The notes under the pieces are model-generated. The model was given only the letters and a program-made list of their open reading frames with translations, had not been told where the DNA came from and made no database searches. Of a stretch of 64,000 nt of DNA, positions 13,222-38,012 are shown one piece after another (the stretch's first letter is position 1; every line of letters begins with the position of its first letter). Both the position numbers and the translations under genes were made by a program. The DNA lies in assembly GCA_900112915.1 (NCBI GenBank), contig FONK01000001.1, forward strand, positions 124,001 to 188,000, in the 5' to 3' direction. The stretch is from Peptostreptococcaceae bacterium pGA-8. Its GTDB lineage: Bacteria; Bacillota; Clostridia; Peptostreptococcales; Anaerovoracaceae.

Positions 13222-14277
13222 TTGTTGAACGAGTTGAATATGTCATCTTTTATCCAGACCATGCAGTCCGGATTTATGGAACACGACAAACAGGAATCGG
13301 CTGGCGTCTTTTTACTGAGTGCAATTAATGATCAGGAGTATGTCGGATTACACGGTTATCGAACCGATAATCTGAGCTCAAAGAAGATAAGCCGAATCGT
13401 CAGTCGAATCGATCATGTCCCTGATGGGATTAAGCAGGCCTCGCAGCTTCAGAATGTAATAGACGATACGATTAAGTATTTCCGCGAAGAGGCCATGAAG
13501 GATCTCAATCCACATCTAAAAGACGACACCATAGGAAATGTAATAAAGCTGATCAATGTAGATACAACCATCTTCGATAGTAAGAAAAAGAGCCTCCCCT
13601 CATTCCATGAGGAAGGTGATGACGCTCGTTTCCTCGCAGAGGTATTCCTATATGCAGTGAACCGGAACAATAAGAAGGTTGATGAGACCGTCGAGTATGA
13701 GGATGCACCGCTTCTTGCAGAGGCAAATTACGAGTGTCCGCTCTGCCATAAGAAGTTGGTGGACATGGTTAAGGGCAAAGCCATAAAGAAGTACTGCATT
13801 ACGCAGATATTCCCCGACGACCTCGATGACGCAACTGCAGGCAAATTCAGTAAGGTGTCTGCTGCTCCAGCCGATTATGACATTACGGAGAATCTGATCG
13901 CGTTGGACGAGGATTGTTACGACTGCTACCTGCTCAGTCCAACGGTCGAGGAATATAAACAGTTCCGCGAGATCAAGGAAGCAATCTCACGAAATTTTGC
14001 TGCAAAGGCATCGGTAAAAAGCATCCAACTGGAGGACGATATCAGGACGGTGCTCGATGCTCTTAGCCAGATCAGGGATGCATCAGAGATGGTTCAGCTT
14101 GAGTATGACGCCCTGCATGTTGAGGAAAAGTTTGAGCCAGAGAACTTTATCCTGAAGAACGAGACGCAGTTGCAGGTCGTCATGTACTACCGTTACATCG
14201 AGAAGGTATTATCGGAATCCGATGTGGACTTCGACACGATCGCCTCGGAGGTCAAGCTAAGTTCGCAGAAGCTGTAG
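13222..14277 (+). CDS. ABC-3C system effector-type protein with degenerate HNH-like zinc domain
   Basis: First gene of an ABC-three-component locus. The N-terminal 160 or so residues resemble the shared ABC-3C domain of uncharacterised function. A cysteine-rich centre follows: YECPLCHKKLV, then KYCITQIFP, then NLIALDEDCYDCYLLSP. Spacing and context recall an HNH endonuclease fold (CxxC, xDHIxP, NLIxLCxxC), but the catalytic His of DHI is Gln here, so cleavage is doubtful. The remainder is helical. I prefer a TTG start at 13222, 8 bases after AAAGGAG; upstream ATGs at 13204 and 13171 lack sites. ABC-3C systems are predicted conflict/anti-phage systems. Confidence 0.65.
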   Translation: MLNELNMSSFIQTMQSGFMEHDKQESAGVFLLSAINDQEYVGLHGYRTDNLSSKKISRIVSRIDHVPDGIKQASQLQNVIDDTIKYFREEAMKDLNPHLKDDTIGNVIKLINVDTTIFDSKKKSLPSFHEEGDDARFLAEVFLYAVNRNNKKVDETVEYEDAPLLAEANYECPLCHKKLVDMVKGKAIKKYCITQIFPDDLDDATAGKFSKVSAAPADYDITENLIALDEDCYDCYLLSPTVEEYKQFREIKEAISRNFAAKASVKSIQLEDDIRTVLDALSQIRDASEMVQLEYDALHVEEKFEPENFILKNETQLQVVMYYRYIEKVLSESDVDFDTIASEVKLSSQKL

Positions 14278-14286
14278 AAGGCAGGA

Positions 14287-14421
14287 ATGAGTCAGGCAGA
14301 AGTTATCGCTCAGCTTGCGGAATGGATACGAAACAAGTCCGAGCTGGATGCCAGCAGGCAGCTGGCGTGCAAAATCGTTGTCTCATTCTTCATACAGAAT
14401 TGCGAGATGTTCCATAAATGA
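14287..14421 (+). CDS. 44-residue small protein within the ABC-3C operon
   Basis: Between the effector and middle-component genes an ATG frame encodes MSQAEVIAQLAEWIRNKSEL through IQNCEMFHK. It begins 9 bases after the effector stop and ends in an ATGA overlap with the next start at 14418, so it is almost certainly translated. It looks like two amphipathic helices. It may be a subunit or a split-off piece of the neighbouring middle component. No homologue is recognised. Confidence 0.6.
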   Translation: MSQAEVIAQLAEWIRNKSELDASRQLACKIVVSFFIQNCEMFHK

Positions 14422-14642
14422 AAGTGCCAAGCAAGGTGACTCCATATAAGGAAAGCACCATCGCAAAGTTTCCGGTTGTGCTGTCACTTCTTGAAAAGAA
14501 TGACATGACACCATCGGAGCTGTATGCGAAGGTGCGGAAAAGCAAGATTAAAGATATAACCGAGTTCGTTGAGGTATTGGACTGCCTCTATGCGATGAAC
14601 AAGATAGAGATCAGGGAGGAGGTGCTCCACTATGTTGGTTGA
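14418..14642 (+). CDS. ABC-3C middle component (MC6-like)
   Basis: The 74-residue protein begins MKVPSKVTPYKESTIAKFPV and ends with a small winged-helix-like pattern (TPSELYAKVRK, then FVEVLDCLYAMNKIEI). The size, the LDxLYAxxxI ending and the position just before a DUF2326-type ATPase match the middle components of ABC-three-component systems, which probably link the ATPase to the effector. It overlaps the 44-residue gene before it and the ATPase gene after it, indicating tight translational coupling. Confidence 0.7.
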   Translation: MKVPSKVTPYKESTIAKFPVVLSLLEKNDMTPSELYAKVRKSKIKDITEFVEVLDCLYAMNKIEIREEVLHYVG

Positions 14643-16209
14643 AGTTCAGTGCGATAAGTTCGTAAAGTACGGACAGATCCGGAAGCCCATCCGCTTCCAT
14701 AGTGGATTGAATGCCGTTCTTGGCGACGACAATGGATCTAACTCCATCGGAAAATCTACCTTCCTGATGATCCTCGACTTTGTCTTCGGAGGCTCAGATT
14801 ACGTAAAGAAGTGCACGGATGTTCAGGAGAATGTTAAGGAGCACACGATCAACTTCACGTTCGAGTTCGACGAGATTCCATTTCATTTTGCAAGGAATAC
14901 TGTTGATTACAATAAGGTCGTGAGTTGCGATGAGAACTACAAGCCTCTGGAGGATGAGAAGCCACTGTCGATTTCAGAGTATTGGGCGTTCCTTTGCGAA
15001 AAGTACGGCCTCACGGCAGATGGAATCACTTGGAGGGGTGTCGTCTCGAGGTTCATCCGTGTCTACAAGCGCGACACGCTCGACGAGGAGCGTCCACTTC
15101 GTTCAGCCAAGGACGAGAAGGCCGCTGACGTCATCAAGAATTATATGTGCTTATTTGACAGGTACGCTGCGGTAGAGACACAGACCAAAATGGCTGTGGA
15201 TGCGGAGGATGAAAAAGAGGCCTGTCATAAGACGACGCAGCAATACAACCGCGTTCGTGCAGCGAAGAACGACAAAGAGAAGGTCGCCAACGAGACGCGG
15301 ATCTTGGAACTGGAGCAGCAGGAAAAAGAGCTGGCAGAAAACAGCAATCAGGGACTTCTCGATCTTGATAGCATGACGGCACGCAGGCTTACAGAGTTGA
15401 ACGAGCAGTTGATCAACTACCGTAGGCAGAGAGCACGTGTGCAGACACAGCTGAATGCCGTCCGTCGTGACATGACCGAGGAGAAAAAAGGCTTCAAAAG
15501 AACATTCACAGAGCTGGTGCGCTTTTTTCCAAGTGAGGAGTTCCGAACACTTGAGGATATAGAACGCTTTCACTCTAAGCTTGCAAAGATCCTTGCGGAG
15601 GAATTCGCGGAAACAGAAAAGGATCTCGCAACCACCTATGTGCTCCTGAATAATGAGATAGTCAAACTTCAGAACGAGGTCACAGAAATACAGAACATCC
15701 CAAATGTATCACAGGCAATATTGAAGGAATTTGCAAGAATCACGACAGAGCTGAATAATCTGCGCGAGGCAAATGAGAACTTTGATGAGCTTGAGAGACT
15801 AAAGAAGGTAGCTGCTGATTACGCAGAGACAAGGGACGCGGTCATTCATGATCAGTTGATAGGAATTGAGTCTTCTGTCAATCAGGCGATGAGGGAGATT
15901 AGCCTTTCCATCTTAAAGGACGCGACACACTTACCACCGATTCTTCGTATGGAGAAGTTGAACAAATATACCTTCAACACACCTAACGATGGTGGCACCG
16001 GAGCTCAGTATCGTGGACTGATCACCTTTGATCTGGCGAATATGGAGGTTGCAACTGTTCCCTTCGTCGTTCATGACTCCGTTCTGCTTAAGAATATCGA
16101 AAGACCAGTATTCTCTGAAATAATGAGGGTGTATGAAGCTGAAAAAGATAAAGATAAACAGGTTTTTATGGCTTATGACACACTTGATTCCTATGGAGAG
16201 GATACATGA
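14632..16209 (+). CDS. ABC-3C SMC-like ABC ATPase (DUF2326 type)
   Basis: The 525-residue ATPase has its Walker A in the N-terminus (residues about 30-45, GDDNGSNSIGKSTFL, with the long insert typical of DUF2326 proteins). A coiled coil runs at about 185-330 (charged heptads around EKEKVANETRILELEQQEK). The C-terminal ATPase half has VPFVVHDSVLL and MAYDTLDS. The architecture is like SMC/RecN proteins. In ABC-3C systems, ATP-driven dimerisation is thought to sense or move on nucleic acid and control the effector. Last gene of the four-gene overlapping operon; the regulator gene follows 84 bases on. Confidence 0.82.
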   Translation: MLVEVQCDKFVKYGQIRKPIRFHSGLNAVLGDDNGSNSIGKSTFLMILDFVFGGSDYVKKCTDVQENVKEHTINFTFEFDEIPFHFARNTVDYNKVVSCDENYKPLEDEKPLSISEYWAFLCEKYGLTADGITWRGVVSRFIRVYKRDTLDEERPLRSAKDEKAADVIKNYMCLFDRYAAVETQTKMAVDAEDEKEACHKTTQQYNRVRAAKNDKEKVANETRILELEQQEKELAENSNQGLLDLDSMTARRLTELNEQLINYRRQRARVQTQLNAVRRDMTEEKKGFKRTFTELVRFFPSEEFRTLEDIERFHSKLAKILAEEFAETEKDLATTYVLLNNEIVKLQNEVTEIQNIPNVSQAILKEFARITTELNNLREANENFDELERLKKVAADYAETRDAVIHDQLIGIESSVNQAMREISLSILKDATHLPPILRMEKLNKYTFNTPNDGGTGAQYRGLITFDLANMEVATVPFVVHDSVLLKNIERPVFSEIMRVYEAEKDKDKQVFMAYDTLDSYGEDT

Positions 16210-16293
16210 AAATTGGTAAGGGGCATATGGTATTAGAATTGTCACCGGATGGAAACGAATTGTTTGGATGGGCTTGGAAAAAGGAGAAAAAAG

Positions 16294-16557
16294 ATGAAGC
16301 AAGCGAGCAGGCATAAGAAAGAATTAAAAACACAGTTTAGCTATAACCGTTTGTGGAAGCTGTTGATTGACCGCAATATTCAGAAGCAGGAGCTCCAAAA
16401 GATGAGCGAGGTTAGTGCTGCTTCAATTGCAAAAATGGGACGAAGTGAGAATGTTACCACAGATGTACTCCTCAGAATTTGTGAAGCCCTCGATTGTAAT
16501 ATTGAGGATATTATGGAGCGTGTTCCAATCAAAGAATTGAATGAGAGAGATGAGTGA
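16294..16557 (+). CDS. XRE-family helix-turn-helix regulator
   Basis: The 87-residue protein is a Cro/C1-type HTH of the YozG-like branch (YNRLWKLLIDRNIQKQELQK, recognition region SAASIAKMGRSENVTTDVLL, then ICEALDCNIEDIMERV). I start at ATG 16294 (AAAGGAG just upstream); an in-frame upstream ATG at 16249 lacks a site. It lies between the ABC-3C genes and the DUF4338/Dpt operon on the same strand. Regulators of this type often control restriction-modification and defence operons. It probably controls the downstream operon. Confidence 0.85.
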   Translation: MKQASRHKKELKTQFSYNRLWKLLIDRNIQKQELQKMSEVSAASIAKMGRSENVTTDVLLRICEALDCNIEDIMERVPIKELNERDE

Positions 16558-16673: not shown

Positions 16674-19367
16674 ATGTTAAACCGGGAAATTCCATTTAGG
16701 CCTAAACTGGAGGGCGACTTCAGAATTAGGTTCTATAATGCCGTGTCCGGCATAGATGAAGAGACATCGCCAGTAGAAACAGAAAAAATTTCTAATGACG
16801 AGATTAATTGGGTACAGGACGTGTGTACCTATAATTTGGGACAAAGAAAAAAATACAGAGCTGTATGGATGCTATTTCGAGATTTAACTCGCGCTTCATG
16901 GAAGGCTTGTTATCGAGATGGTGTTCTATATATGAGTCTGCCGAGTCTGAACGGAGCGGATATACACGATTCCTCTTCACCAGAAGTAAAAAAGCTTCTG
17001 AGAAGTTGGATGAGTGAGAGCAGACATGAGCGCTTAGTTTCATATACTGATTTTATTCAGAGAATGGAACGGGCAAACACAAGTGGTCACAGTATCGATG
17101 AATTGGTAGCTGATGGAGAAGAATTAATCCTTCGATTAGAGCGTGCTCGTGATGGCGAGATACCCATCGCAGAAGCGATAGATCCTTATTTACAGCTGGT
17201 TGTCGAAAACGAAAGAGACCCGTTTACTGGTATAAAAACATCTGAAATATGGCGGTATTTCAGGCTAACATGGTCTACTCCAGCGGAGACTACTCCGGGG
17301 AGAACTATGCAGTATTTAATTCGTGACGCGGCTCATCCGATGCATGCTGTGATGGGAATTGCTTCACTGGAAAATTGTGCTGTGCAAATTACCTGCAGAG
17401 ATGACTACATTGGATGGAACCAAAAAGCATTTATTGACAGAATTACATTACTCAATTCCAATGACGCTAAAGCAGAATTTGAACAACTTCTAAAATATCT
17501 TGAGTTGGGAATCTCAGGAATTGACTATTCAGAGCTTTGCACTAAAGCAACTGTTTATAACCCATGCGACGAGGATATACAGCAACTGCTTGATTTTGCA
17601 AATAGTGCAGAGCAACGTCGGCAGGAGCTTTTGAAGGAGGCGCTTGAGGAAGGTATTGATGAAGATGAGAAAAGCGAGCTCGGAAGCATTTCAAAGGATA
17701 CAGAGGATGCTCTGTATAGGAGAAAAAGAGCAGAACAGCTTGCACGTCTTCTCATGGCAAAGAAATCTCTTTTAGAGATCTATTCATCTGATCGGTTTGA
17801 CGAAATATGGGTGGAATATTGCAGGAGCGAGATCGGCAATTCAGCTGTAAGAAGTGCGCTGGTCGCACAAAAGACACAGCACATTGGATCAAGCTTAATG
17901 GAATTAAACGTCTGTGGAGCAATTCCTCCATATAACGAGGTTTTGGGTGGAAAACTGGTTGCTCTCCTTGCAACATCGCCTCAGGTGATACATGATTACA
18001 AGGAGCGTTATTCTGATAAAGCCAGTATGATAGCCAGTCGGCTTAAAGGTGAGAATGTTATCAGACCAGCAGATCTGGTTTATATAGGAACTACCTCCTT
18101 GTACTATGTTGGTTCAAGCCAGTACAACAGATTGAAGATTCCGAGCGGTGTCTTTAACTCTGATTTCGATATCGTTTGGAAGAAGCTTGGAATGACCATA
18201 GGCTTTGGCACAATGCACATTAGCAAAGCCACTACTTTGAGCCTTACAGAAGCTACAAGCGATGGCTTCAACAGAATTAATCATGTATTTGGAGAGGGAG
18301 CAAGTCCTAAAATGCGTCTTCTCACCATGTCCATAAGGGAACTGCTTGAATCAACAAATGAAGATTCAAAGGATTTTTCTAAGCATTCAATGTCCCGAAT
18401 TGTATATGGGGCTTGCCTTGCTTCAAATACGTTGGACTATTTGCTCGGAAAGGCAGACGCTCCTGAATATTATACGGATATTGAGTATTATCAAGAGGGA
18501 ACTGAAAAAATAATCAATTATTGGAGAGAAAGATGGCTCAGAAGTAGGTTGAACTATGATCCGATTTTCGAGCGAATCCGAAGCTTTAATAAAGAAACCC
18601 TTCTTGTGGGAAATCAAATAGACGAAGATGAGGAATGGACATTTAAGAAACTGAAGGAGGTATCACATATGCCTGTAAACGATGATAAGAAAGTGGGACT
18701 GCAATTCATTCGTGACTTCTATCGCGGAACAAGCGCATATGCTGATCACGTAGATGAAGAGCTTCTTGCTCACATTCATCTGAAAACCAAGCTTGATGAT
18801 GCGATCATCAAAGCAGCGAAGCAGGGGAAAGACATTGTTCTTACTGGCAGCCCCGGGGACGGGAAGACTCACATTATCAGAATGCTAAAGAAAAAGCTGG
18901 AGAAACTTCCCAATTCTGCGATTGTCGAATTAGATGCAAGCACACGCTCGAATGAGGGAATTTACAAGTCTTGGAGGACTGCTCGGGAAAAGCAGGTTCC
19001 GTTTGTGATCGCTATTAATGCTGCTGTGCTGTATGCCGTTTATTGCGCATACCCCGATTTTGAACCGGTGAGAAATGCCTATTTGCAGATGATTAATTCG
19101 GTTGTCTTTCATAATGAGGAACAGCAGACGGATTCTCTTGTTGTGGTTGATCTTAGTAAGAGAGAGGCTTTGACAAGTGAGATTCTCAAGCAAGCAATTA
19201 TAAAGATGACTGATGAAAAGCATTATAAGGAATGCAAGGATTGTCCGTTTTTTGACACCTGTGTTGTCAAGAAGAACAGAGAACTGCTTAATACGGAGTT
19301 GTTTCAGGAAAGGCTTGATATTATATTGCGACGCGTATCGCTGCAGGGCTATCATGCGACCCTATGA
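16674..19367 (+). CDS. DUF4338 (DruA-like) domain fused to DptF-like AAA+ ATPase, 5' part (gene interrupted by TGA)
   Basis: Residues 1 to about 640 match DUF4338, the domain of Druantia protein DruA: YLIRDAAHPMHAVMGIASL with RDDYIGWN near 210-245, GAIPPYNEVLGGKLVALLA near 416, and TTSLYYVGSSQYNRL near 473. From about 650 begins a DptF-like ATPase, with Walker A at Thr724-Thr732 (TGSPGDGKT), a hydrophobic strand and Asp near 826 (SLVVVDLS), and a CKDCPFFDTC cluster near 854. DptF is the ATPase of phosphorothioation-dependent restriction. The frame meets TGA at codon 898, then continues in the same frame with ELQSFIAYLIFGNRTC, so the product here is truncated. Role: predicted anti-phage component. 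The fusion itself is unusual. Confidence 0.72.
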   Translation: MLNREIPFRPKLEGDFRIRFYNAVSGIDEETSPVETEKISNDEINWVQDVCTYNLGQRKKYRAVWMLFRDLTRASWKACYRDGVLYMSLPSLNGADIHDSSSPEVKKLLRSWMSESRHERLVSYTDFIQRMERANTSGHSIDELVADGEELILRLERARDGEIPIAEAIDPYLQLVVENERDPFTGIKTSEIWRYFRLTWSTPAETTPGRTMQYLIRDAAHPMHAVMGIASLENCAVQITCRDDYIGWNQKAFIDRITLLNSNDAKAEFEQLLKYLELGISGIDYSELCTKATVYNPCDEDIQQLLDFANSAEQRRQELLKEALEEGIDEDEKSELGSISKDTEDALYRRKRAEQLARLLMAKKSLLEIYSSDRFDEIWVEYCRSEIGNSAVRSALVAQKTQHIGSSLMELNVCGAIPPYNEVLGGKLVALLATSPQVIHDYKERYSDKASMIASRLKGENVIRPADLVYIGTTSLYYVGSSQYNRLKIPSGVFNSDFDIVWKKLGMTIGFGTMHISKATTLSLTEATSDGFNRINHVFGEGASPKMRLLTMSIRELLESTNEDSKDFSKHSMSRIVYGACLASNTLDYLLGKADAPEYYTDIEYYQEGTEKIINYWRERWLRSRLNYDPIFERIRSFNKETLLVGNQIDEDEEWTFKKLKEVSHMPVNDDKKVGLQFIRDFYRGTSAYADHVDEELLAHIHLKTKLDDAIIKAAKQGKDIVLTGSPGDGKTHIIRMLKKKLEKLPNSAIVELDASTRSNEGIYKSWRTAREKQVPFVIAINAAVLYAVYCAYPDFEPVRNAYLQMINSVVFHNEEQQTDSLVVVDLSKREALTSEILKQAIIKMTDEKHYKECKDCPFFDTCVVKKNRELLNTELFQERLDIILRRVSLQGYHATL

Positions 19368-19421
19368 GAACTTCAGAGCTTTATTGCCTATCTGATCTTT
19401 GGCAATCGAACCTGTAAGCAG

Positions 19422-20264
19422 TTGAATCAAACTGCTGGAAATAATCAATATGACCTTGTGAATTTGGTTTATTCCGGCAAGGGGAATTTGTTCACGGCTA
19501 TCAATAACGCAATTGATCCGATCAACATTTCGCATCCGGTTTGGGATGAAAAAATCCTTTTAAATGAGATCTCGACTGACTCTTGGATTGAAGGATATGC
19601 GGTTCCGGCGGAGGCAATCGCATATGACAATGATGATATGTTCAATCTGAGAAAACGGCAGTTTTTCTTCTTTAATCTTTATGGGGATGAACTGTTAAAA
19701 ATTCTCGATGACGATGCAGCAAGATTCCAAAAGTTTTTGGAGCAGGATAACGGGAGAATCATCAAGGATTTGATATCAAAGCTCAATGGTTTCTTTGGGG
19801 CGGTGAACGCGTCAAACACTAAACTGCAGATATGGTCGGGGCACCGCTACAATAACGAGCCCAGAAAGGTTTTGGTATCTGCAGGAGTTATAAAGAAGAA
19901 CGAATTTAGCGTTGGGAGACCGACACTTCTAAGTAGCATGCAGTCTGGTATTGATATGACATCTAATTATATTAGGCTGGAGAAAAAGGATTCTCCCAAT
20001 ATATTCCTTAAGGTGGATTTTGAGATGTATCTGCTTCTAAATGAAGCGGAGCGAGGCGTGCCAGTGTTGTTCATGGAATCTGACTTGGTGAAGAAGGTTT
20101 GGCGATTTATTGAACAACTACAGTCATATGGTGATATTGATGAGGAAGATTCCGTTGAGATTGGTCTAATGGATGTTCAGAATAAGCGTACAATCATGGT
20201 CGATGTTGATAGAGAGGATCAGAAGTATTCATCCATTGACAGCGAAAGAGCAAGGGAGGTGTAA
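19422..20264 (+). CDS. DptF-like ATPase, 3' part of the interrupted gene
   Basis: This frame is in phase with 16674-19367. Coding resemblance starts right after the TGA at 19365-19367 (ELQSFIAYLIFGNRTC), so the listed TTG at 19422 is not a true start and lacks a site. It supplies the C-terminal lid/helical part of DptF-like ATPases (segments YSGKGNLFTAINNAIDPINI, ILLNEISTDSWIEG). Joined to the upstream part, the whole gene encodes about 1196 residues, of which the last 556 or so equal the usual size of a free-standing DptF. The stop lies 5 bases before the next start. Expression in this strain would need readthrough, reversion or reinitiation. Confidence 0.65.
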   Translation: MNQTAGNNQYDLVNLVYSGKGNLFTAINNAIDPINISHPVWDEKILLNEISTDSWIEGYAVPAEAIAYDNDDMFNLRKRQFFFFNLYGDELLKILDDDAARFQKFLEQDNGRIIKDLISKLNGFFGAVNASNTKLQIWSGHRYNNEPRKVLVSAGVIKKNEFSVGRPTLLSSMQSGIDMTSNYIRLEKKDSPNIFLKVDFEMYLLLNEAERGVPVLFMESDLVKKVWRFIEQLQSYGDIDEEDSVEIGLMDVQNKRTIMVDVDREDQKYSSIDSERAREV

Positions 20265-20269
20265 GCGAG

Positions 20270-21754
20270 ATGGAACAGATTTATCTTCGTGCTGCACGCA
20301 AAGCGGTTGATAAGACGTACATAGGCTTTACTCCGAATGGGAGTTCTATTAAGCCTGTGCATATTGCAGGCGGATCACTTCGCTGTATTTATGGCTCATA
20401 TAATCGGACAAAGAATATTAAACGGATGGCATTGGTATCTGATGCAAAAGGTAATATTCCTACAGGAAACGAAGCGGAGACCATTTATAGACTTTTATCC
20501 TACGAAGAAAAGATAGAGGACAACATCTCCGAAAATGCTCTGGAGTCGATGCGAAATGTAATGCAGAGACTGCTTTCTGTTGATAAAGGCGTATATGTGG
20601 TAAAAGGCCTAAAGGATGTAATGATATCGTATTCGGCTGGATCAAAATACTTCTTAACCAGCAGAGCTATGTATGAGGATGCTGGCGAATTTGTTGGAGG
20701 TGTTATAAGGGCATATTGTCCAGATCTTGCCAATTACGTCAGGGATGTACTTGATGCAGGTAACGATCCTATTACGCTGCTGTTTGAGCCAGTCCTTGAA
20801 GCAGATATGGAGGTTTTTGCTGATCAAAATCAGCACGAGGAACTTCCTGCATTTAAAACTATGAACGATAGCACTCGCTGGTTTGTTGAGGGAATAAAGG
20901 AAGGGGGAAATTGCCTGTTAGATAATTTCCACCATCATCCAAATCCACTGACCCAACTTCGCCTTTTCAACTTTTTCTGTATTGTGAACCTTATTCGTTA
21001 CATGACATTGCTGGAAGCCTTCTATTGTGATGAGAGCGTCAGACCTATTCTTTTGGACTTTAGTGGGAAAAGTCCAAGCTTTAGCAGCGTAGCAAGAATG
21101 TCCGAGATGTCATACACACAAATGTATAAATCAATAAACCGCTTTTATGCATGGGGCTACGCAAAATGGCTTGACGAGCAGGGCTTTTCAAAGAACGATC
21201 TTTTAAATTCAGAAACTCCTGTGTATGAGAAGGGAAAGTCCGTTTCTAAGGCAAGCAAGGAGGAGTTAGATGCCCTATGGTCACTTGCAAAGGAACGAGC
21301 AAGTAATGCGAACGGTGAGGATGTTTACCTTGAATTTGGAGAGACTATGTATGACATGCTCGCTTTAGAGGCATCCTCTCATCCAGTGACATATATTAAG
21401 GCTCTCGGCACATCGTCTGGACTGTTATATCCCCCAGATAAGCTTCATCCCAACAAGCGTTTTGTTATCTCACAGGACATTCTCGAAATGTTACTGCGTA
21501 GTTGCGTAAAATCTGGAGAAGTGATTAGTGGCATGGAAATTAGAGAACGGCTTTGGAATCGATTTGGAATTGTTGTAGGTGGAAGCCAATTCGAAATGCG
21601 AATGCTTCAGTCTGGTGGAATGATTCTGCAAGCAGATGAAGATGCATTGGAGGAAAATTTTTCTTCGTTTGCCGCGACGTTAGAGTCGATGGATTTTGCA
21701 GAGGTTATGGCAGATGGCATTCTGCAAATTAGAATGGGAGGTGTTGCAAGATGA
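20270..21754 (+). CDS. DptG-position protein of the DUF4338/Dpt operon
   Basis: The 494-residue protein follows the DptF-like gene by 5 bases and overlaps the DptH-like gene by 4 bases (ATGA type). Its size and place match DptG, the poorly characterised middle partner in DptFGH systems. I see no catalytic motif. It appears mostly alpha-helical, with HHHPNPLTQLRLFNFFCIVN in the centre and a predicted winged-helix-like C-terminus (EMLLRSCVKSGEVISGMEIR). Sequence alone did not let me name the family, so DptG is inferred from context. It probably bridges the two ATPases. Confidence 0.55.
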   Translation: MEQIYLRAARKAVDKTYIGFTPNGSSIKPVHIAGGSLRCIYGSYNRTKNIKRMALVSDAKGNIPTGNEAETIYRLLSYEEKIEDNISENALESMRNVMQRLLSVDKGVYVVKGLKDVMISYSAGSKYFLTSRAMYEDAGEFVGGVIRAYCPDLANYVRDVLDAGNDPITLLFEPVLEADMEVFADQNQHEELPAFKTMNDSTRWFVEGIKEGGNCLLDNFHHHPNPLTQLRLFNFFCIVNLIRYMTLLEAFYCDESVRPILLDFSGKSPSFSSVARMSEMSYTQMYKSINRFYAWGYAKWLDEQGFSKNDLLNSETPVYEKGKSVSKASKEELDALWSLAKERASNANGEDVYLEFGETMYDMLALEASSHPVTYIKALGTSSGLLYPPDKLHPNKRFVISQDILEMLLRSCVKSGEVISGMEIRERLWNRFGIVVGGSQFEMRMLQSGGMILQADEDALEENFSSFAATLESMDFAEVMADGILQIRMGGVAR

Positions 21755-24700
21755 TGGACAAGCAATCCTTAGTAACAGAACTGCTACGAGAGCAGCTTGA
21801 GGTCGCAAAGACCGGGATAATTATAAAAGGGATAGATGGCATTAATCCAAGCGCCATTGCCAAGAGGATCCTCGATGCATATAAGCCTCTTTATATTGCT
21901 GTGATTGGATATGGTTCTATATTGGAAAATGATCAGGATGATTTTTCCATTACGGATTCAATTGAAAAGGCGGTTTTGTGGAGAAGTAACCCTGAGTGTG
22001 CAGGGAATATTCTTGTATTTATAAAAAATGATACAGATAAGCTGCATTCCTTAGCGGAGTTTGACGTCGTGACGACAAGGGATATCTCGCGCTATTTATT
22101 GGATCAGCAGCTGAAGGGCGATAATAATACCCCTACTCACAATTTCTGGGAGGCACTTCGAGACACATCTGATTACTACAACTTCGACGCTTTATATGAA
22201 TTTGTTGAGGCGGTAGTGGAAGCAGAGAGTCCGGCTGAGGCGATTCCCAATAATATGTGGAGAATCAACTTGTTGTTGGACGCGTCTATTTTGGGAACAA
22301 AGAACGACCCAAAGGAACGTCTTGCCAAAAATAGAGACCTTATATTTGCAATCGGACAGTTGAGCGAGGACTCGAGAAAGAAGCTGAGCCGCTCCCTTGC
22401 AAGGACAAAGCCCGGAGATAAGGACAGACTGCAAAAGGCCTATCACAGTCTGCAGAGCCTGTATAAATACGGTAAGCGCGAAACACTTAAGGACTTAGAT
22501 TTAGAGACAGTTCAGGAGTTGTTCTCTGCATCTCAAAAAAAGAGCAAGAAGGCAGAAACGACTCAAAGTAATCCATCAGGTGATAATCCAGAGATAACAA
22601 TAGAAAATACGCCTATTAAGCCAAAGGAATTAGATAATCTTATTTCTGATGCGGTCGTTTTTGGCGACGAAGAAGAATTGGATAACATTCAGGAACTTCT
22701 TAAGGAATTAAGCAAGCATTATGATACTGAGACGGAGGAAAATGATGATGAAATTCCTCCTGTAGGAGGAATTTTTGGCGACAGAAATATTGTTCTTGAA
22801 TCTCATCAGACTGACCTTCGGAAGTTGGTTGGGAAGTTCTGCAATCTATCCTCTTGGGGCGGATTGATGGAAACTGATGAGAGTGTTTTGAAGGATGCAA
22901 TATCTGCTGATATATCCGAATCAAAATACTTCGACCCAGAAAGCAAGCAATCCATCATAGCCTTTTCAGGAGGCATTGATGGGAGTCAGGCTCTCTTTGA
23001 TTTCATCGTGCAATTCGATGCGCAGTTTGACGCAAAGGGACTGGATGGTGCCGAGCATTTTGCACCAATCATCAATAATCTTAAGACACAACGGGAAAAG
23101 CTCTTTTCCTCTATCGATATGATCATGTACCATCCGGTGCTTTTCTTTGGCGCATCGGAGGATAATAGAAAAAATCTTATAGGCTATATCCAAGCATGGG
23201 AAAGCCTTTATCATGCATTTTGTGTGAATGAGCCTACCATGAGACAGATCAGTGCCGGAGGGACAAACTTTATTGCGAGGGCTATCCTTTTACTTGATGT
23301 CCTCTATGTTAAAACACCAAAGGAGTGGAAGGGAATTCTGCTTCCTCTACATCCCATATATCTTTGGCGGTTTTATGAGGTATTCCGTACCTTGCCCAAC
23401 AAGAAGGCATCCTTGAGCGGCGAGGATAAGGAGGCGTTGTCCTCTGTGCTTTCACAGTTGCCACAGGTACTTAGCTTTATTATTGCAAATGGCGTTGTTA
23501 CAGAATCCTCCGAGGATCGTGTGCTACCGTGCTCTGGAAGTATTGAGATGCTGCCAACCTTCGAGAACAAGACAAATCGTTATTTAGGAAATGACGGAAC
23601 TGAATCAATTGAAGAAATTCTCACAAGGTGGGTAGGCTTTGCACCTTATACAAGAAATGAGATCAGGATCTGCTCAGTAGATGCACCGGATCTTATTGGA
23701 ATTCTACGACAGATCAAAAGCTTCATGGACAAAAACGCCTGCAGGCGTGTTGTGTACGATATGTATCTGACCAGAAATCAAAACGGTAATACAGAGCTTT
23801 CTAAGTTGGATTATGCTGGTAAGGATTATGAGATTGGCGAGTATATTAAGCAAGACAGAATCTCTATCAGCGTACGCAACGTTCGTTCAGCGAATGATGT
23901 AAAAGCTGCGTTGGATTCTAGGCCGGTTCATGTTGCGTTTTACTTTGATCAGTCCTCATACGCTATTGAATTCGGACCAAATAGTCATAATCTGTACATC
24001 AACCCTTTGGTTATTACCTATGACTATGATTTTGATGAGATCCAGCATAAGGGCAGCATATTCCCTTCATCCGAGATGGATTCCGGATTGATAGGCGATT
24101 ATCACAAGCTAATGAAATCTGCGGATGTCATTAGCAACAACATGAATCCGCGTACAACCTACAATGGCAGCGCAGATATGACAGCGGTGGTATCAACTAT
24201 TGAAGCTGGTTTAACACAGTGGCTTGTCGTTGCTGATAGAGATACCAACAACTATCAGCCAGAGAACGCTATTCCCATTGGGGAGATGCAATATGATAAG
24301 CGAATGGTAAACGCGTGGGCTTCAGATAGCTCGAGAATAATCTCTCAATATCTGACACTTCTTCGCGGATATAATCTGTACCCCAAGGCAGAAACGCTAA
24401 TAAACATATTGCGTCAGTTTGGGCATATTGCATCTAATGGACTCATCAGCATTCCAAAGTTTGGTGCCGATGCACAAGCGATTGACAATAAGAAGAAGGG
24501 CTTAATAGGAACGTTATTTGCAGCCTCTTGGTATGTGAGAAAGCACGAGGATGCTCTTATAGCCTCCTTGGATGATGATAAGGCAAGACTGTGGCTGCAA
24601 AATCGTAAGGACAGTAATGAACGGGCGGATCTTGTCGGGCTTTATTACGACAAAGACAGCAACATATTACACATACAGCCCATTGAGGTTAAGACTCGTG

Positions 24701-26487
24701 ATGAGTCACCTGATGCGACATTCACTAAGGATGAAATTGACTCAAGGAGCTTTAACATTACTGGGCATGCTGCTGACCAGATAGCTTCCGTTGTTGAGAC
24801 GCTGAGAGAAATATTCGCAATGGGCGAAAATACAGCTGATATGTTTACTTCAGCTCGCCGTGAGGTTTTAAAGTATCAGATAGTATCTGAATGCTTTAGA
24901 AATGTGCACGACGCGGAATGGCAGAAAAGGTGGTACGACATTTTAAAGAAGGCTTTTTCAAATAGTCAGAGAAAGAATGTCACCATAGATGTTTCCGGAC
25001 TTCTAATGCACATCAAGCTTAATGAAGCCTCTGGTGGAGATCATATTACATGCCGTCACCCGGAATATGATGACTGCCAAATTGATTATTGGAAGTTGAC
25101 AGCCAAGGAGATTCAAAGAGATGTTCTTGGTGATGGAACACCAGTAAAGGAAATGTGGACACCAGATTTTGATGTTTCAGAGGAAGGTGATCAATCAGCA
25201 CAGGATAACGATGCTATAGTTGATTCTGATGTTGAAGAAGTAACTGAGGTAGCACAACAAGACGCTGCTAAGACCTACAAGTACACATTTCCCTCTACAG
25301 ACGATGTCGGTATGGTTGCGGCGACCGCCGTCTCATTCCTTGGGAAAAAGGATAAGCAAAACGAGGAAGCGGAAAAAACAGTAAACGGCGTTAGCTACGA
25401 TGAAATCGAGCAGCTTGTAAAGGATTTTAAGAGGTCGTGCGGAGATTATCATGTATCGCTTAGGGAATGCGATGCTAAAAACACGGTTGTCGGCCCGAGT
25501 GTAATTCGTTTGAAGTTCAGACTGGGAAGAGGACAGGCACTTCAGGGATTATCGAGTCACTTGGAGGATATTGGCAGAGAAATGAAGCGCACTGGTGTGA
25601 TAATTCAGCAGGTGCCAAACTCCGATGAGTTGCTCCTTGATGTGCCGAGACTCAGGCGTGAAAAAGTATTATTTAAGAATGTCATATCATCACTGCCAGA
25701 GGTCAAATCACCAGAGCAGCTTTTCTTCCCACTTGGCCTGACTCCAAATGGTAAGGATCTGGTTGAGGATCTTGGGCAAATGCCTCATATGCTCGTCGGT
25801 GGTAGTACAGGCTCCGGTAAATCTGTGTTCCTGTTTACCATGCTTGCAGCGATGCTGATGACTCATCCGCACAGGGAGGATCTGCAGTTAATCCTATCAT
25901 CCTCTAAGCTTGAGGACTTTATCCACTTTGAAGGATTACCTCACCTTTATTCTGGTAGTGTCATTTCCGATGCAACAGAGGCTACGAGAGTTATTAAAGA
26001 GGTGGTCTTCGAAGAATCAGAACGTAGAGGGAAGCTCTTGGCAGAGGCGAGGGTTGCAAACATTAGCGAATATAACAAAATCGCTGAGGAAAAGCTTGCG
26101 CCTATCGTTGTTGTTATAGATGAATTTGCTGACCTTGCAGACCAATTAGAGTCCAAGAAGGAGCAAAATGCATTTTATAAGCCTGTACAGCGTATCGCGC
26201 AAGCAGGAAGGAGCAGAGGCATTCACCTTGTGATTTGCACCCAGCGACCTGAAGCAAAATTAGTGCCTTCAACAACAAAAGCGCAGTTAAATGGTAGAGT
26301 TGCTTTACGAGTTAATGATGGGATTTCTTCACGAATGATAATCGAAGCTCCAGATGCTCAATACCTTCAGAAGCATGGGGATATGATTTATAAAAACGGA
26401 GATGTTGTTGAGAGAGCGCAGGGCTATTTGATAGAAACACCGGAGCTTGATGAAATCGTGAGGGATGTAATCAACGGAAAAAATTAA
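21751..26487 (+). CDS. dptH: DptH-like protein: PD-(D/E)XK-type centre plus FtsK/HerA-type ATPase
   Basis: This 1578-residue protein has a C-terminal FtsK/HerA-family motor: Walker A GGSTGSGKS at residues 1350-1358, Walker B VVVIDEFADLAD around 1453-1464, and GRSRGIHLVICTQRP, the arginine/sensor region of FtsK-like DNA pumps. Residues 1-900 are large and uncharacterised. At 960-981, ADLVGLYY and then PIEVKT give Asp960 and Glu979-x-Lys981, the layout of a PD-(D/E)XK nuclease. A low-complexity acidic linker (around 1145-1180) separates the halves. DptH is the DNA-translocating partner in phosphorothioation-dependent restriction. It overlaps the gene before it by 4 bases. Confidence 0.75.
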   Translation: MMDKQSLVTELLREQLEVAKTGIIIKGIDGINPSAIAKRILDAYKPLYIAVIGYGSILENDQDDFSITDSIEKAVLWRSNPECAGNILVFIKNDTDKLHSLAEFDVVTTRDISRYLLDQQLKGDNNTPTHNFWEALRDTSDYYNFDALYEFVEAVVEAESPAEAIPNNMWRINLLLDASILGTKNDPKERLAKNRDLIFAIGQLSEDSRKKLSRSLARTKPGDKDRLQKAYHSLQSLYKYGKRETLKDLDLETVQELFSASQKKSKKAETTQSNPSGDNPEITIENTPIKPKELDNLISDAVVFGDEEELDNIQELLKELSKHYDTETEENDDEIPPVGGIFGDRNIVLESHQTDLRKLVGKFCNLSSWGGLMETDESVLKDAISADISESKYFDPESKQSIIAFSGGIDGSQALFDFIVQFDAQFDAKGLDGAEHFAPIINNLKTQREKLFSSIDMIMYHPVLFFGASEDNRKNLIGYIQAWESLYHAFCVNEPTMRQISAGGTNFIARAILLLDVLYVKTPKEWKGILLPLHPIYLWRFYEVFRTLPNKKASLSGEDKEALSSVLSQLPQVLSFIIANGVVTESSEDRVLPCSGSIEMLPTFENKTNRYLGNDGTESIEEILTRWVGFAPYTRNEIRICSVDAPDLIGILRQIKSFMDKNACRRVVYDMYLTRNQNGNTELSKLDYAGKDYEIGEYIKQDRISISVRNVRSANDVKAALDSRPVHVAFYFDQSSYAIEFGPNSHNLYINPLVITYDYDFDEIQHKGSIFPSSEMDSGLIGDYHKLMKSADVISNNMNPRTTYNGSADMTAVVSTIEAGLTQWLVVADRDTNNYQPENAIPIGEMQYDKRMVNAWASDSSRIISQYLTLLRGYNLYPKAETLINILRQFGHIASNGLISIPKFGADAQAIDNKKKGLIGTLFAASWYVRKHEDALIASLDDDKARLWLQNRKDSNERADLVGLYYDKDSNILHIQPIEVKTRDESPDATFTKDEIDSRSFNITGHAADQIASVVETLREIFAMGENTADMFTSARREVLKYQIVSECFRNVHDAEWQKRWYDILKKAFSNSQRKNVTIDVSGLLMHIKLNEASGGDHITCRHPEYDDCQIDYWKLTAKEIQRDVLGDGTPVKEMWTPDFDVSEEGDQSAQDNDAIVDSDVEEVTEVAQQDAAKTYKYTFPSTDDVGMVAATAVSFLGKKDKQNEEAEKTVNGVSYDEIEQLVKDFKRSCGDYHVSLRECDAKNTVVGPSVIRLKFRLGRGQALQGLSSHLEDIGREMKRTGVIIQQVPNSDELLLDVPRLRREKVLFKNVISSLPEVKSPEQLFFPLGLTPNGKDLVEDLGQMPHMLVGGSTGSGKSVFLFTMLAAMLMTHPHREDLQLILSSSKLEDFIHFEGLPHLYSGSVISDATEATRVIKEVVFEESERRGKLLAEARVANISEYNKIAEEKLAPIVVVIDEFADLADQLESKKEQNAFYKPVQRIAQAGRSRGIHLVICTQRPEAKLVPSTTKAQLNGRVALRVNDGISSRMIIEAPDAQYLQKHGDMIYKNGDVVERAQGYLIETPELDEIVRDVINGKN

Positions 26488-26509
26488 TTGAAGATTGGGG
26501 TGGTAGAGA

Positions 26510-27190
26510 GTGTCTGAGCCTATATTTGTACAAGGCGTATTTAAAGAAGAATTAAAGAACAGATTTCTTTGCCTTGTAGAGGTGGATGGCAAGGATACTC
26601 TCTGCTATATCCCATCGTCCTGCAGACTGAGTAACTTTGTTAATTTGGTTGGGAAAGATGTATTGCTTGCGCACAATCAGTCATCTAATACCAGAACAGA
26701 GTATGCGGTTTATGCGTTCCGTGACAAAAGACAGTTTGTCTTGCTCAACATGTCTCAGGCCAATAGAGTAATCGAAAGAGGAATTAAGGGCAGGAGGTTC
26801 TCCTTCCTCGGAAAGAGAGTTAACGTAAAAAAGGAATACCGCATTGAGGGGTACAAGAGTGATCTCTATATTGATGATTCTCATACGATAGTTGAGATAA
26901 AAAGTATTCTATCCTTCGATAGGAATGCGCTTTTCCCAACGGTGTATTCCGAGAGGGCAATTGATCAGCTAACAAAGCTCAGTGACCTCATGGATAAGGG
27001 CTACAAGGCATGTTACCTATTTGCGTCATTAAGTCCAAGGGTGAAAGAAGTAAAAATAAATGGGGAAATAACAAGGTATCACGAGTTGTTTATGGAATGC
27101 GTCAATAAAGGAATGGTATTAAAAGGGTATTCAATAAGGCTTATTGATAATGAGCCCGTAATACACTCTGAAATTAAAGTTATTGTCTGA
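26510..27190 (+). CDS. SfsA-family nuclease-like protein linked to the Dpt operon
   Basis: The 226-residue product has SfsA features in order: an OB-fold-like N-terminal part (FKEELKNRFLCLVEVDGKD), a PxxxRLxxF-type segment (SSCRLSNFVNLVG), KKEYRIEGYKSDLYI, then VEIKSILSF, the ExK nuclease strand, and FPTVYSERAIDQLTKL. SfsA proteins are PD-(D/E)XK-fold DNA/RNA nucleases, better known as a sugar-fermentation stimulation factor. The GTG start at 26510 lies 22 bases after dptH. In this setting it is most likely an accessory effector of the defence operon. Standard SfsA is a little longer and more conserved, so this is a divergent member. Confidence 0.72.
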   Translation: MSEPIFVQGVFKEELKNRFLCLVEVDGKDTLCYIPSSCRLSNFVNLVGKDVLLAHNQSSNTRTEYAVYAFRDKRQFVLLNMSQANRVIERGIKGRRFSFLGKRVNVKKEYRIEGYKSDLYIDDSHTIVEIKSILSFDRNALFPTVYSERAIDQLTKLSDLMDKGYKACYLFASLSPRVKEVKINGEITRYHELFMECVNKGMVLKGYSIRLIDNEPVIHSEIKVIV

Positions 27191-27979: not shown

Positions 27980-29077
27980 GTGAATAAAGATCCATTTAAG
28001 GACTATATCAAAGAATCTGAACCGGGCAAGCGGGACAAGGGCTATGCGTGGCATACGGCCATTGGCTTGCAGGCGGTTGACGGGTTGAAAACATCGGAAT
28101 ATCTGGTGCATACTGCCGTTCGGAATATCGAAGGTGAGATTTCCTTTGAAGAGGCAAATGCACTTTTACAGACCTACTATGAGGAAAATCCTGCCAGTGA
28201 TGCATCAGATCGTACTGAGGAAGCCGACAAGGTTTCTGCGCGTATTGCTGCGCTTCTTTCAGAGCGTGCATTTAGCTTTACACCAAACGAGTATCTCTCC
28301 GTTCACAGGAAGCTGTTTACCGGCATTTATTCTCATGCTGGGCGCATTCGGGATTACAATATCACGAAGAAGGAATGGGTGCTGAACAGAGCGACTGTGC
28401 TATATGGCAGCGCCACAGAGCTGCGGGCGACACTTGACTATGATTTCTCAGAGGAGAAGAAGTTTTCCTATAAGAATCTTACGATGGAAGAAATCATTCA
28501 CCATCTTGCCGTGTTCGTATCAAGACTATGGCAGATCCATGTTTTCGGTGAAGGTAATACCAGAACGACAGCGGTGTTCTTCATCAAGTATTTACGCACG
28601 CTGGGCTTTGATGTGACAAATGATATTTTCGCCGAGAATGCATGGTATTTTCGGAATTCACTCGTCAGGGCAAATTACAATGACCTGAAAAACGGCATTC
28701 ACGAAACGACGGAGTTCCTTGAGGTATTCCTCCGCAATCTTCTACTGAATGAGAATCACCCGCTTCATAACCGGACATTGCATATCAGCGGCACCTTTAA
28801 GGAAGCAGAAAAACCGGACATTGAAACTGCAAAAGCGGACATTGACGCTTTAAAAGCGGATATTGAGGCTGTTTTTCAACCGAAAACTGCAAGCCATATT
28901 TTGAAGTTACATGAGGCATTTCCGGGTCAGACGATCTTTGGAAGGTCTGATGTGATGAGGGTGATTGATATTAAAGCATCCAGAGCCTCTGATCTATTAA
29001 AGGAAATGGCAGAGCGAGGGATTATTGAGCCTGTGTCCGGACAGGGAAAGGGCAGATATCAATTTCGACACCAGTAG
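27980..29077 (+). CDS. Fic-domain AMP-transferase-like protein
   Basis: The 365-residue protein has the Fic motif HVFGEGNTRT starting at His187, which fits the HxFx(D/E)GNxR pattern needed for transfer of a nucleotide to a target hydroxyl. Upstream, RNIEGEISFEEANALL resembles the (S/T)xxxE(G/N) inhibitory helix of class II Fic proteins in position, so it may be self-inhibited. The C-terminal 80 residues look like a winged helix (ASHILKLHEAFPGQTIFGRS, SRASDLLKEMAERGIIEPVS). Between them is a repeated KADI(D/E) segment. The start is GTG 27980, a weak site. There is no partner antitoxin beside it. Confidence 0.85.
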   Translation: MNKDPFKDYIKESEPGKRDKGYAWHTAIGLQAVDGLKTSEYLVHTAVRNIEGEISFEEANALLQTYYEENPASDASDRTEEADKVSARIAALLSERAFSFTPNEYLSVHRKLFTGIYSHAGRIRDYNITKKEWVLNRATVLYGSATELRATLDYDFSEEKKFSYKNLTMEEIIHHLAVFVSRLWQIHVFGEGNTRTTAVFFIKYLRTLGFDVTNDIFAENAWYFRNSLVRANYNDLKNGIHETTEFLEVFLRNLLLNENHPLHNRTLHISGTFKEAEKPDIETAKADIDALKADIEAVFQPKTASHILKLHEAFPGQTIFGRSDVMRVIDIKASRASDLLKEMAERGIIEPVSGQGKGRYQFRHQ

Positions 29078-29631: not shown

Positions 29632-30582
29632 ATGAAGGGAAGAAAAGATATAGCTGAAAATGTAACGGTAATACAGAAACAGAGAGGTATAAAAGATTAT
29701 GCAGTTGGAATATACGCTCGTGTAAGTACAAGCCATAAAGCTCAAATGGATAGTTTATCGGCACAAGTATCGGGGTTGACGAGACTGGCAGTTGCACATA
29801 GAACATGGTTTGTTGCGGATGTTTTTATTGATGTTTCATCTGCTAAGACAGACTCGACAAGATCAGAATTTAATAGAATGATAAATGAGTGCGAGCAAGG
29901 GAATTTAGATATTATTCTTACTAAAAGTCTTAGCCGTTTTGGACGTGATGCTAAAGAAGGCTTAGAAGCTATTAGAAAAATTCGAGCAGCAGGGAAAAGA
30001 ATTATCTTTGAGAAAGATAAGATAGATACAGAGACCGTTAAAGATGAACTCCTGGTTAGCATAATTGAAGCATGTGACCAAGCAGAAAATGACTGGAGAA
30101 GTGAGAACATACGCTTAGGCTTGAAATGCAGAGCCGAGGATGGAACATCAGGACTTTACAATAGAGTCTGTTACGGCTATAGAAAAGATAAAAATGGAAT
30201 GCTTATCATTAATGATGAAGAGGCAAAAGTTGTTAAAATTATTTTTGACTGGTATCTTGAAGGATACAGTATCGGTGGAATAATCGATAAACTGGCAGAA
30301 AAGAAGATACAGACATCTAAAGGTAAAGAACGATGGAGTAAAAGAGCAATTGAATCCATGTTAACACGAGAAAAATATACAGGTGATGTGGCAATTGCTG
30401 ATTCTGGAGGATCTGATAATCGATATTTGAATAATAATCATCACGAAGGGATAATTTCAAAAGAGCAATTTGAAGCAGTTCAACTAGAAATGGAACTGCG
30501 TAGTAATGTGGAAATTGGAGAAGATGGAAAGGCTCGAAGAAAGAGTAGGAAATATAGTTCGAAGAGAGGTGATAAATTATGA
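29632..30582 (+). CDS. Large serine recombinase, C-terminally truncated
   Basis: Site-specific recombinase. Catalytic Ser32 sits in YARVST and the arginine set in LTKSLSRFGRD and ENDWRSENIRLGL. A recombinase domain follows, from about 150 to 300 (GYSIGGIIDKLAEKKIQTSK, TREKYTGDVAIADSG). At about residue 310, after RRKSRKYSSK, where full-length relatives enter a zinc ribbon and coiled coil of 150-200 more residues, the product stops. The catalytic domain is intact, but DNA-target binding by the zinc domain is lost. The stop overlaps the ATG of the next gene by 4 bases. It may be a relic kept for coupling or a minimal recombinase. Confidence 0.85.
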   Translation: MKGRKDIAENVTVIQKQRGIKDYAVGIYARVSTSHKAQMDSLSAQVSGLTRLAVAHRTWFVADVFIDVSSAKTDSTRSEFNRMINECEQGNLDIILTKSLSRFGRDAKEGLEAIRKIRAAGKRIIFEKDKIDTETVKDELLVSIIEACDQAENDWRSENIRLGLKCRAEDGTSGLYNRVCYGYRKDKNGMLIINDEEAKVVKIIFDWYLEGYSIGGIIDKLAEKKIQTSKGKERWSKRAIESMLTREKYTGDVAIADSGGSDNRYLNNNHHEGIISKEQFEAVQLEMELRSNVEIGEDGKARRKSRKYSSKRGDKL

Positions 30583-37966: not shown

Positions 37967-38012
37967 AAGGGGCTGTTACTCTAACGATTAGAAATTAGTG
38001 CGACAGCCCCTT
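37967..38012. terminator. Bidirectional hairpin between the MerR and adhesin genes
   Basis: The inverted repeat AAGGGGCTGT / ACAGCCCCTT (37967-37976 and 38003-38012) is exact. The minus-strand adhesin gene reads into it and stops in its loop. Confidence 0.6.

What the first reader, a model, noticed from the sequence alone, without database searches (positions are those of the whole stretch)
16674..27190. Candidate novel defence system: DUF4338 (DruA-like)-DptF fusion with DptG, DptH and SfsA-like genes
One tightly packed operon (gaps of 5, -4 and 22 bases) joins parts of two systems. Residues 1-640 of the first gene carry the DruA-type DUF4338, directly fused to a DptF-size (about 556-residue) ATPase. 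A 494-residue DptG-position protein and a 1578-residue DptH-like translocase follow, then an SfsA-family nuclease. Druantia types known to me have the DruE helicase, and Dpt systems are partnered with DndBCDE sulfur modification; neither is in this window. I know of no described system with this composition. The XRE gene upstream may be its regulator.
Basis: partly seen in the sequence, partly recalled or inferred. Interest (0 to 1): 0.92.

Follow-up and report, generated by a model that had tools for sequence, protein, structure and literature searches.

The report
DruA-fused DndFGH defence operon, broken copy
This looks like a four-gene bacterial anti-phage operon that joins a Druantia-type protein to a DndFGH-type DNA-cutting complex and adds its own SfsA-like nuclease; the copy in this genome has a premature stop, but intact copies exist in other bacteria.

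Summary
The operon is real, but its first gene is not intact. 16674-20264 encodes full-length DruA (residues 1-640) fused to a DndF/SspF-type P-loop protein, cut by an in-frame TGA at 19365-19367. Eleven homologues have this frame open. Next come a DndG (model matches solved DndG 7exx, Z 13.4), a DndH with REase and FtsK motifs, and an SfsA-family nuclease. The order DruA-F, G, H, SfsA recurs in 11 other loci; a twelfth has a deletion but keeps SfsA. The operon SfsA is a clade apart from housekeeping SfsA. DndC passes its cut-off in 1 of 13 carrier genomes; DruE is strong in 2 of 13. In 4 of 5 haloarchaeal plasmids the split version lies near a DruE helicase.

The fusion is in print: Rakesh et al. 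2024 list DUF4338 among N-terminal fusions of DndF and treat DndFGH as stand-alone. I found no mention of the SfsA partner or the DruE link, but supplements were not readable. Verdict: new variant of a known kind, broken here.

The parts
16249..16557 (+). XRE/Cro-type HTH regulator (HTH_26), possible regulator of the operon; the HMM match was made on the in-frame stretch 16294-16557
   Evidence: PF13443 E 3.5e-18; similar gene upstream of the fusion in 11 of 14 loci incl. window
16674..19367 (+). First piece of the DruA-DndF fusion gene (897 aa), ending at an in-frame TGA
   Evidence: PDLC00001 DruA E 1.2e-116, SspF E 3.8e-12
16674..18593 (+). DruA (DUF4338, PF14236) region, residues 1-640
   Evidence: PF14236 E 3e-32; PDLC00001 residues 46-638
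19365..19367 (+). In-frame TGA that interrupts the fusion; the frame is open here in 11 full-length homologues
19368..20264 (+). Second piece of the DndF-like region (298 codons; 280 aa from a possible TTG start at 19422)
   Evidence: tblastn identity 55-81% to the same region of 12 homologous loci
20270..21754 (+). DndG/DptG/SspG-type subunit (494 aa)
   Evidence: model of homologue L024 G: best PDB match 7exx DndG, Foldseek prob 0.99, E 0.018, VIA Z 13.4, 289 aligned, rmsd 4.9; alignment A3
21751..26487 (+). DndH/DptH/SspH-type subunit (1578 aa) with putative REase and FtsK/HerA translocase
   Evidence: SspH E 2.7e-64; FtsK_SpoIIIE E 3.7e-32; alignment A4
24628..24693 (+). Putative REase motif in H: D960 ... 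E979-x-K981
   Evidence: invariant in 10 of 10 aligned H proteins incl. the window's; the reading as REase is mine, after the DndH description in PMC10853773
25699..26250 (+). FtsK/SpoIIIE translocase domain of H (residues 1317-1500, Walker A 1350-1357)
   Evidence: Walker A invariant 10 of 10
26510..27190 (+). SfsA-family PD-(D/E)XK nuclease, operon-specific paralogue (226 aa)
   Evidence: PF03749 E 2.2e-16, PF17746 E 5.7e-8; D118/E129/K131 invariant 12 of 12; own clade, 100/100 support

Best explanation
It is a stand-alone DndFGH-type restriction system with its own accessory parts: DruA fused to the front of DndF, and a dedicated SfsA-like nuclease as fourth gene. Shown: gene order, domain families and conserved putative catalytic motifs. 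Inferred from DndFGH work: G and H bind invader DNA, H's FtsK motor moves along it, and H's REase domain nicks or cuts it. Also inferred: F binds a nucleotide and acts as a sensor or switch, and DruA acts through F as an added sensor or co-effector. The SfsA paralogue then probably degrades the nicked DNA. No phosphorothioate marking is needed. In this genome the F subunit is cut off by a premature stop, so the local copy is probably not working as a complete system.
For: DruA, SspF and SspH matches. DndG fold match well above the other rows (Z 13.4, next 5.6). SfsA is the next gene in 12 of 12 other loci that reach past H, one of which has lost part of F, all of G and part of H. Putative REase and Walker A residues of H invariant 10 of 10. 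In F, the Walker A positions G725 and G728-T732 are invariant in 10 of 10 homologues (the window is not in that alignment but reads GSPGDGKT). SfsA catalytic residues invariant 12 of 12. The operon SfsA clade is separate from housekeeping SfsA, which 7 of 12 genomes also carry. DndC over cut-off in 1 of 13 genomes, and none in the window's genome. DndFGH acting without DndABCDE is argued in PMC10853773. Proteins are constrained across the operon: dN 0.10-0.44 against three homologues with dS saturated.
Against: No activity has been tested for any member. The window copy is interrupted. The SspF match is modest and TIGR03238 is below its cut-off. The G match needed a model of only 63 mean pLDDT, its Foldseek E is 0.018, and the aligner's own note says that Z up to about 13 can be reached by chance in helical proteins. 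The DruA part could not be modelled (pLDDT mostly 24-40 over residues 402-673), so its role is guesswork. In four haloarchaeal plasmids the same genes lie near DruE, so the bacterial set may lack a partner that matters elsewhere.
Confidence: 0.62

Rival explanations
1. It is a Druantia variant: DruA is the core sensor, and DndFGH took over the role of the DruE helicase; in haloarchaea both motors work together.
For: The DruA region is the strongest match in the first gene (E 1.2e-116). In 4 of 5 haloarchaeal plasmids with DruA-F-G-H a full-length DruE lies close by. Pseudoflavonifractor sp. 60 has two DruE1 genes, and its only DruA is the fusion.
Against: Strong DruE matches in only 2 of 13 bacterial carrier genomes, and none in the window's genome. 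No DruB, DruC or DruD match in the operon. Three of the four haloarchaeal plasmids are near-copies (97-100% in DruE), so they give about two independent cases; the fifth, Halobaculum litoreum, has no DruE on its plasmid at E 1e-30.
Confidence: 0.15
2. DruA and SfsA are suicide effectors: DndFGH is the first line, and the fused DruA domain (proposed GNAT acetyltransferase) or SfsA kills the cell when restriction fails.
For: PMC10853773 proposes back-up co-effector roles for N-terminal domains of DndF, GNAT/DUF4338 included. DruA is strongly conserved, 83-85% identity to the three homologues compared.
Against: Nothing here shows acetyltransferase activity or the GNAT fold. SfsA has a housekeeping paralogue in 7 of 12 genomes, which argues weakly against high toxicity.
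Confidence: 0.2
3. The TGA is not a break: the two pieces are made as separate polypeptides, or the stop is read through, and the local system works.
For: The region after the stop is as well conserved as the one before it (identity 77-81% against 63-73%, three homologues). DruA and F are separate proteins in haloarchaea.
Against: The stop lies inside the F region, not at the DruA/F border, and none of the 11 full-length homologues has a stop there. TGA ends 4 of the 11 other window genes listed, so it serves as a normal stop. The bases before the TTG at 19422 hold no clear ribosome-binding site.
Confidence: 0.06

Closest known systems
DndFGH (DptFGH) / SspFGH restriction modules
   Same: F P-loop protein, G with the DndG fold, H with putative REase and FtsK/HerA translocase, contiguous in this order. 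DUF4338 fused to DndF is listed in PMC10853773.
   Different: Adds an SfsA-family nuclease as conserved fourth gene; no DndC over cut-off in 12 of 13 carrier genomes; F and G are diverged beyond easy HMM detection.
Druantia type I
   Same: Full-length DruA (PDLC00001); in haloarchaeal relatives also DruE1 and a weakly DruD-like gene (tested on Haloplanus; close homologues in two more plasmids).
   Different: No DruB, DruC, DruD or DruE match in the operon; DruA is fused to DndF; no DruE in the window's genome.
SfsA (DNA/RNA nuclease, sugar fermentation stimulation protein)
   Same: OB-type N-terminal and PD-(D/E)XK domains (PF17746, PF03749); resembles solved SfsA 4dap (E 8.5e-6).
   Different: Operon-bound paralogue, separate clade, below the TIGR00230 cut-off (77.8 against 126.45 bits).
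HerA/FtsK capture systems incl. BREX-related capture, and MADS
   Same: FtsK/HerA translocase plus winged-helix protein plus nuclease logic (sections read); weak MAD7 match of G (E 7.5e-5) and mad8 match of H (E 5.2e-20).
   Different: No match to PglZ, Orc/Cdc6-type ATPases or methyltransferases among the operon proteins scanned.

Membership tests
DndFGH/SspFGH | DndF/SspF-type P-loop protein | tested here: met
   SspF models E 3.8e-12; Walker A positions G725 and G728-T732 invariant in 10 of 10 homologues; TIGR03238 only 13.7 bits, below its cut-off 50. Window copy interrupted.
DndFGH/SspFGH | DndG fold (three winged-helix domains) | tested here: met
   Model of the L024 homologue against 7exx DndG: Foldseek prob 0.99, E 0.018, Z 13.4, rmsd 4.9, 289 aligned; mean pLDDT only 63. 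The count of three winged helices is from PMC10853773, not tested here.
DndFGH/SspFGH | DndH with REase and FtsK/HerA ATPase | tested here: met
   SspH E 2.7e-64; FtsK_SpoIIIE E 3.7e-32; D960/E979/K981 and Walker A invariant 10 of 10. REase assigned by motif reading, not by an HMM or a fold.
DndFGH/SspFGH | F-G-H contiguous, same order | tested here: met
DndFGH/SspFGH | Partner phosphorothioation genes (not obligatory according to PMC10853773) | tested here: not met
   DndC TIGR03183: none in the window's genome; 1 of 13 carrier genomes over the cut-off, five more with weak matches below it. Other dnd or ssp modification genes were not searched.
Druantia type I | DruA | tested here: met
   PDLC00001 E 1.2e-116; PF14236 E 3e-32
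Druantia type I | DruE helicase | tested here: not met
   None in the window's genome; strong in 2 of 13 carrier genomes, both away from this operon; two more genomes had only weak matches. Close by in 4 of 5 haloarchaeal plasmids.
Druantia type I | DruB, DruC, DruD | tested here: not met
   No match of the operon proteins at E up to 0.1
SfsA | PD-(D/E)XK catalytic residues | tested here: met
   D118/E129/K131 invariant 12 of 12
SfsA | NCBIfam equivalog cut-off (TIGR00230) | tested here: not met
   77.8 bits against 126.45: family member, not the housekeeping equivalog
GNAT acetyltransferase (claimed for DUF4338 in PMC10853773) | GNAT fold of the DruA region | tested here: inconclusive
   Model unusable in this region; no informative fold or profile match
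Working anti-phage defence system | Protection from phage or plasmid | not testable with these tools
   needs bench work

The most novel reading that the evidence does not exclude
DruA-DndFGH is a defence class of its own that bridges Druantia and Dnd. DruA is a portable sensor or loader that can drive either the DruE helicase or the DndFGH translocating nuclease, with a clade-specific fourth gene: SfsA in the bacterial loci, and in two haloarchaeal plasmids an unassigned 368-aa protein that I read as a CoiA-like PD-(D/E)XK nuclease. In Pseudoflavonifractor two DruE operons without a DruA of their own may even share the DruA of the fusion.
Probability: 0.25. Interest if true: 0.68.

Novelty: new variant of a known kind. 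Interest (0 to 1): 0.5.

Why it matters
DruA has no agreed function in what I read, and DndFGH without phosphorothioation lacks a known self/non-self signal. A conserved system in which both are one protein, with a dedicated nuclease and mostly without DndC in the same genome, is a compact place to test what DruA does. The haloarchaeal loci that add DruE suggest that Druantia type I and DndFGH share a module. Intact copies sit in named organisms (Anaerotruncus colihominis DSM 17241, Pseudoflavonifractor sp. 60), so the test can be set up directly.

Tried and rejected
Considered and rejected: (1) chance neighbourhood: rejected, as the order recurs. (2) Classic Druantia: rejected for this genome, no DruE. 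(3) Classic Dnd restriction partner: rejected for this genome, no DndC. (4) Housekeeping SfsA caught by accident next to the operon: rejected by the tree. (5) A code that reads TGA as a residue: not supported, since TGA ends 4 of the 11 other window genes listed.

Led nowhere: the AF2 model of the whole fusion was poor (mean pLDDT 49), so the GNAT claim stayed untested. Its Foldseek list (50 of 657 matches shown) held mostly generic ATPases, helicases and unrelated proteins, none with E at or under 0.001. No significant profile match of DruA to solved structures, and none of G by sequence. G proteins of five other loci gave no PADLOC match except one weak SspG (E 0.0081, L021). The scans of genome contigs and viral contigs used two short patterns each, so 11 and 1 loci are lower bounds. 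In 391 class genomes only the window's own had the fusion at full length, six others had short partial matches; in 148 relatives it was full length in the window's genome and G075, with three short partial matches. A first SfsA tree contained two wrongly framed rows and was replaced. dS was saturated, so no dN/dS ratio can be given. The DruE search also rings in 12 of 14 control genomes and the DndC search in 5 of 14, none over its cut-off, so only strong matches were counted. Most of the window outside the operon was not annotated: Pfam was run on 20 of its ORFs or pieces.

Literature: eight searches. Seen: PMC10853773 abstract, outline, passages and sections 19-22 and 25; PMC12458937 abstract, outline and passages; PMC12839542 passages and section 36; PMC12904381, PMC8565338, PMC2743648, PMC13192584 and PMC10924106 passages only; PMC11662687 only its abstract's start in the listing. 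Supplementary files were not open to me (0 look-ups allowed, none tried), so the SfsA gene or the DruE link may be listed there. DefenseFinder and unheld papers were not checked.
Full report
What is in the sequence. The window carries a tightly packed operon at 16674-27190. Its first gene begins with full-length DruA: PADLOC model PDLC00001 aligns to residues 46-638 (E 1.2e-116) and PF14236 matches (E 3e-32). It continues into a P-loop protein of DndF/SspF type (SspF E 3.8e-12; the TIGR03238 match is below its cut-off). The frame is interrupted by an in-frame TGA at 19365-19367. The stretch behind it keeps the sequence of the homologues and is no less conserved than the stretch before it, so the break is recent or an assembly error; reads would be needed to decide. 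TGA ends 4 of the 11 other window genes listed, so it is a normal stop here.

The other genes. G (494 aa) had no Pfam or PADLOC match and a weak MAD7 match. A model of its homologue in L024, from ten sequences, has solved DndG (7exx) as best match: Foldseek probability 0.99 at E 0.018, and VIA Z 13.4 over 289 residues with the next row at 5.6. The model is middling (mean pLDDT 63), and the aligner warns about helical proteins at such Z. Independent support: a haloarchaeal homologue, related to the window G by tblastn (E 1.3e-19), matches SspG directly (E 1.9e-12). H (1578 aa) matches SspH and FtsK_SpoIIIE, with a weak FtsK-alpha match. That fits the 'clade 2' DndH of Rakesh et al., which I did not test by a tree. 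Its putative REase residues D960, E979, K981 and its Walker A are invariant in 10 of 10 proteins. The last gene is an SfsA-family protein with D118, E129 and K131 invariant in 12 of 12.

How conserved the set is. A genome of the same family (G075) carries the fusion at 72% identity with an open frame of 1199 codons. One scan of a collection of 84,980 species genomes with two short patterns gave 11 loci, and one of viral contigs gave one more. With the window and G075 that makes 14 loci. Eleven homologues keep the full fusion frame open. A similar XRE gene lies upstream in 11 of 14 loci, missing in L018, L022 and L023. The operon SfsA proteins form one clade apart from seven housekeeping SfsA proteins of the same genomes (100/100); both kinds are present in 7 of 12 genomes. 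So the nuclease belongs to the system.

Is it Druantia or Dnd? DruE matches are strong in 2 of 13 carrier genomes: two DruE1 genes in Pseudoflavonifractor sp. 60 and a more distant, pieced match in G075; two more genomes had weak matches only, and none is in the window's genome. DndC passes its cut-off in 1 of 13 and is absent here; five further genomes had weak matches. In all 12 genomes tested the only DruA is the fusion. Many of these are metagenome assemblies, so absence is weak evidence for each one.

Relatives elsewhere. A tblastn search of plasmids found 16 records. Five haloarchaeal plasmids carry DruA, F, G and H as separate neighbouring genes; in Halobaculum litoreum several of them look broken. 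In four of the five a full-length DruE lies close by. It was confirmed as DruE1 by HMM in Haloplanus and by tblastn in the others. In three near-identical plasmids DruE is divergent from druA with two genes between; in Natribaculum longum it is 57% identical and lies behind H. The fifth has no DruE on its plasmid at E 1e-30. Two of the five have a homologous 368-aa gene behind H; Pfam gives it only a sub-threshold DUF7830 match, and the CoiA-like nuclease reading is mine. Hymenobacter canadensis carries a DruA-F fusion.

Prior art. Rakesh, Aravind and Krishnan 2024 (PMC10853773; sections 19-22 and 25 read) describe DndFGH as a stand-alone counter-invader system. [quoted passage not shown] The central claim of novelty is therefore anticipated. 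The words SfsA and Druantia do not occur in that main text, and my searches found no paper joining SfsA or DruE to DndFGH. Supplements were not available.

How it probably works. By analogy with DndFGH (PMC10853773; nickase and translocase activity is stated in the abstract of PMC11662687, seen in the listing), G and H would find and track invader DNA, H would nick it, and F would be the nucleotide-bound switch. DruA, fixed to F, would add a sensor or effector. SfsA would finish the degradation. The first half rests on homology, the last two roles are inference. The GNAT assignment of DruA could not be checked.

Verdict. The SfsA partner and the haloarchaeal DruE link are the parts that look new.

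Noticed in passing
window 13171-16209: ABC-three-component (ABC-3C) type system directly upstream (CTD11-like, small middle gene near 14418-14621, DUF2326 ATPase); in the window the CTD11 match runs past the end of the 368-aa ORF, so that gene may be frameshifted. Similar ABC-3C genes precede the operon in L006, L016 and L027, and a CTD6/MC2 type in L024; the other loci were checked only in part.
   Followed up: partly
window 27980-29077: Fic-domain protein matching PADLOC candidate PDC-S72 very strongly (E 5.2e-196) just after the operon.
   Followed up: no
window 29632-30582: Serine recombinase with Ccr-like matches below their cut-offs at the edge of a sharp drop in GC from about 0.43 to 0.27: a possible mobile-element boundary.
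   Followed up: no
L023:10001-14419: One open frame of 1472 codons joins DruA, the start of F and the end of H, with G and the middle lost; deletion or assembly artefact.
   Followed up: no
L046:3395-14019 and L047:6059-14306: Pseudoflavonifractor sp. 60 has two DruE1 genes; one has a DruD match and a weak CoiA_N match upstream, the other's neighbours were not scanned. No DruA was found in the genome except the fusion.
   Followed up: partly
L030:10028-13782: Roseivivax plasmid: DruA overlapping a gene for an MzaB-like GHKL ATPase, another DruA partnership.
   Followed up: no
L025:2103-3434: PAPS-reductase/DUF3440 gene about 6.5 kb upstream of the operon in Anaerotruncus colihominis.
   Followed up: no
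window 37981-39678: Minus-strand gene with a SHIRT domain, a surface-protein repeat by recall.
   Followed up: no
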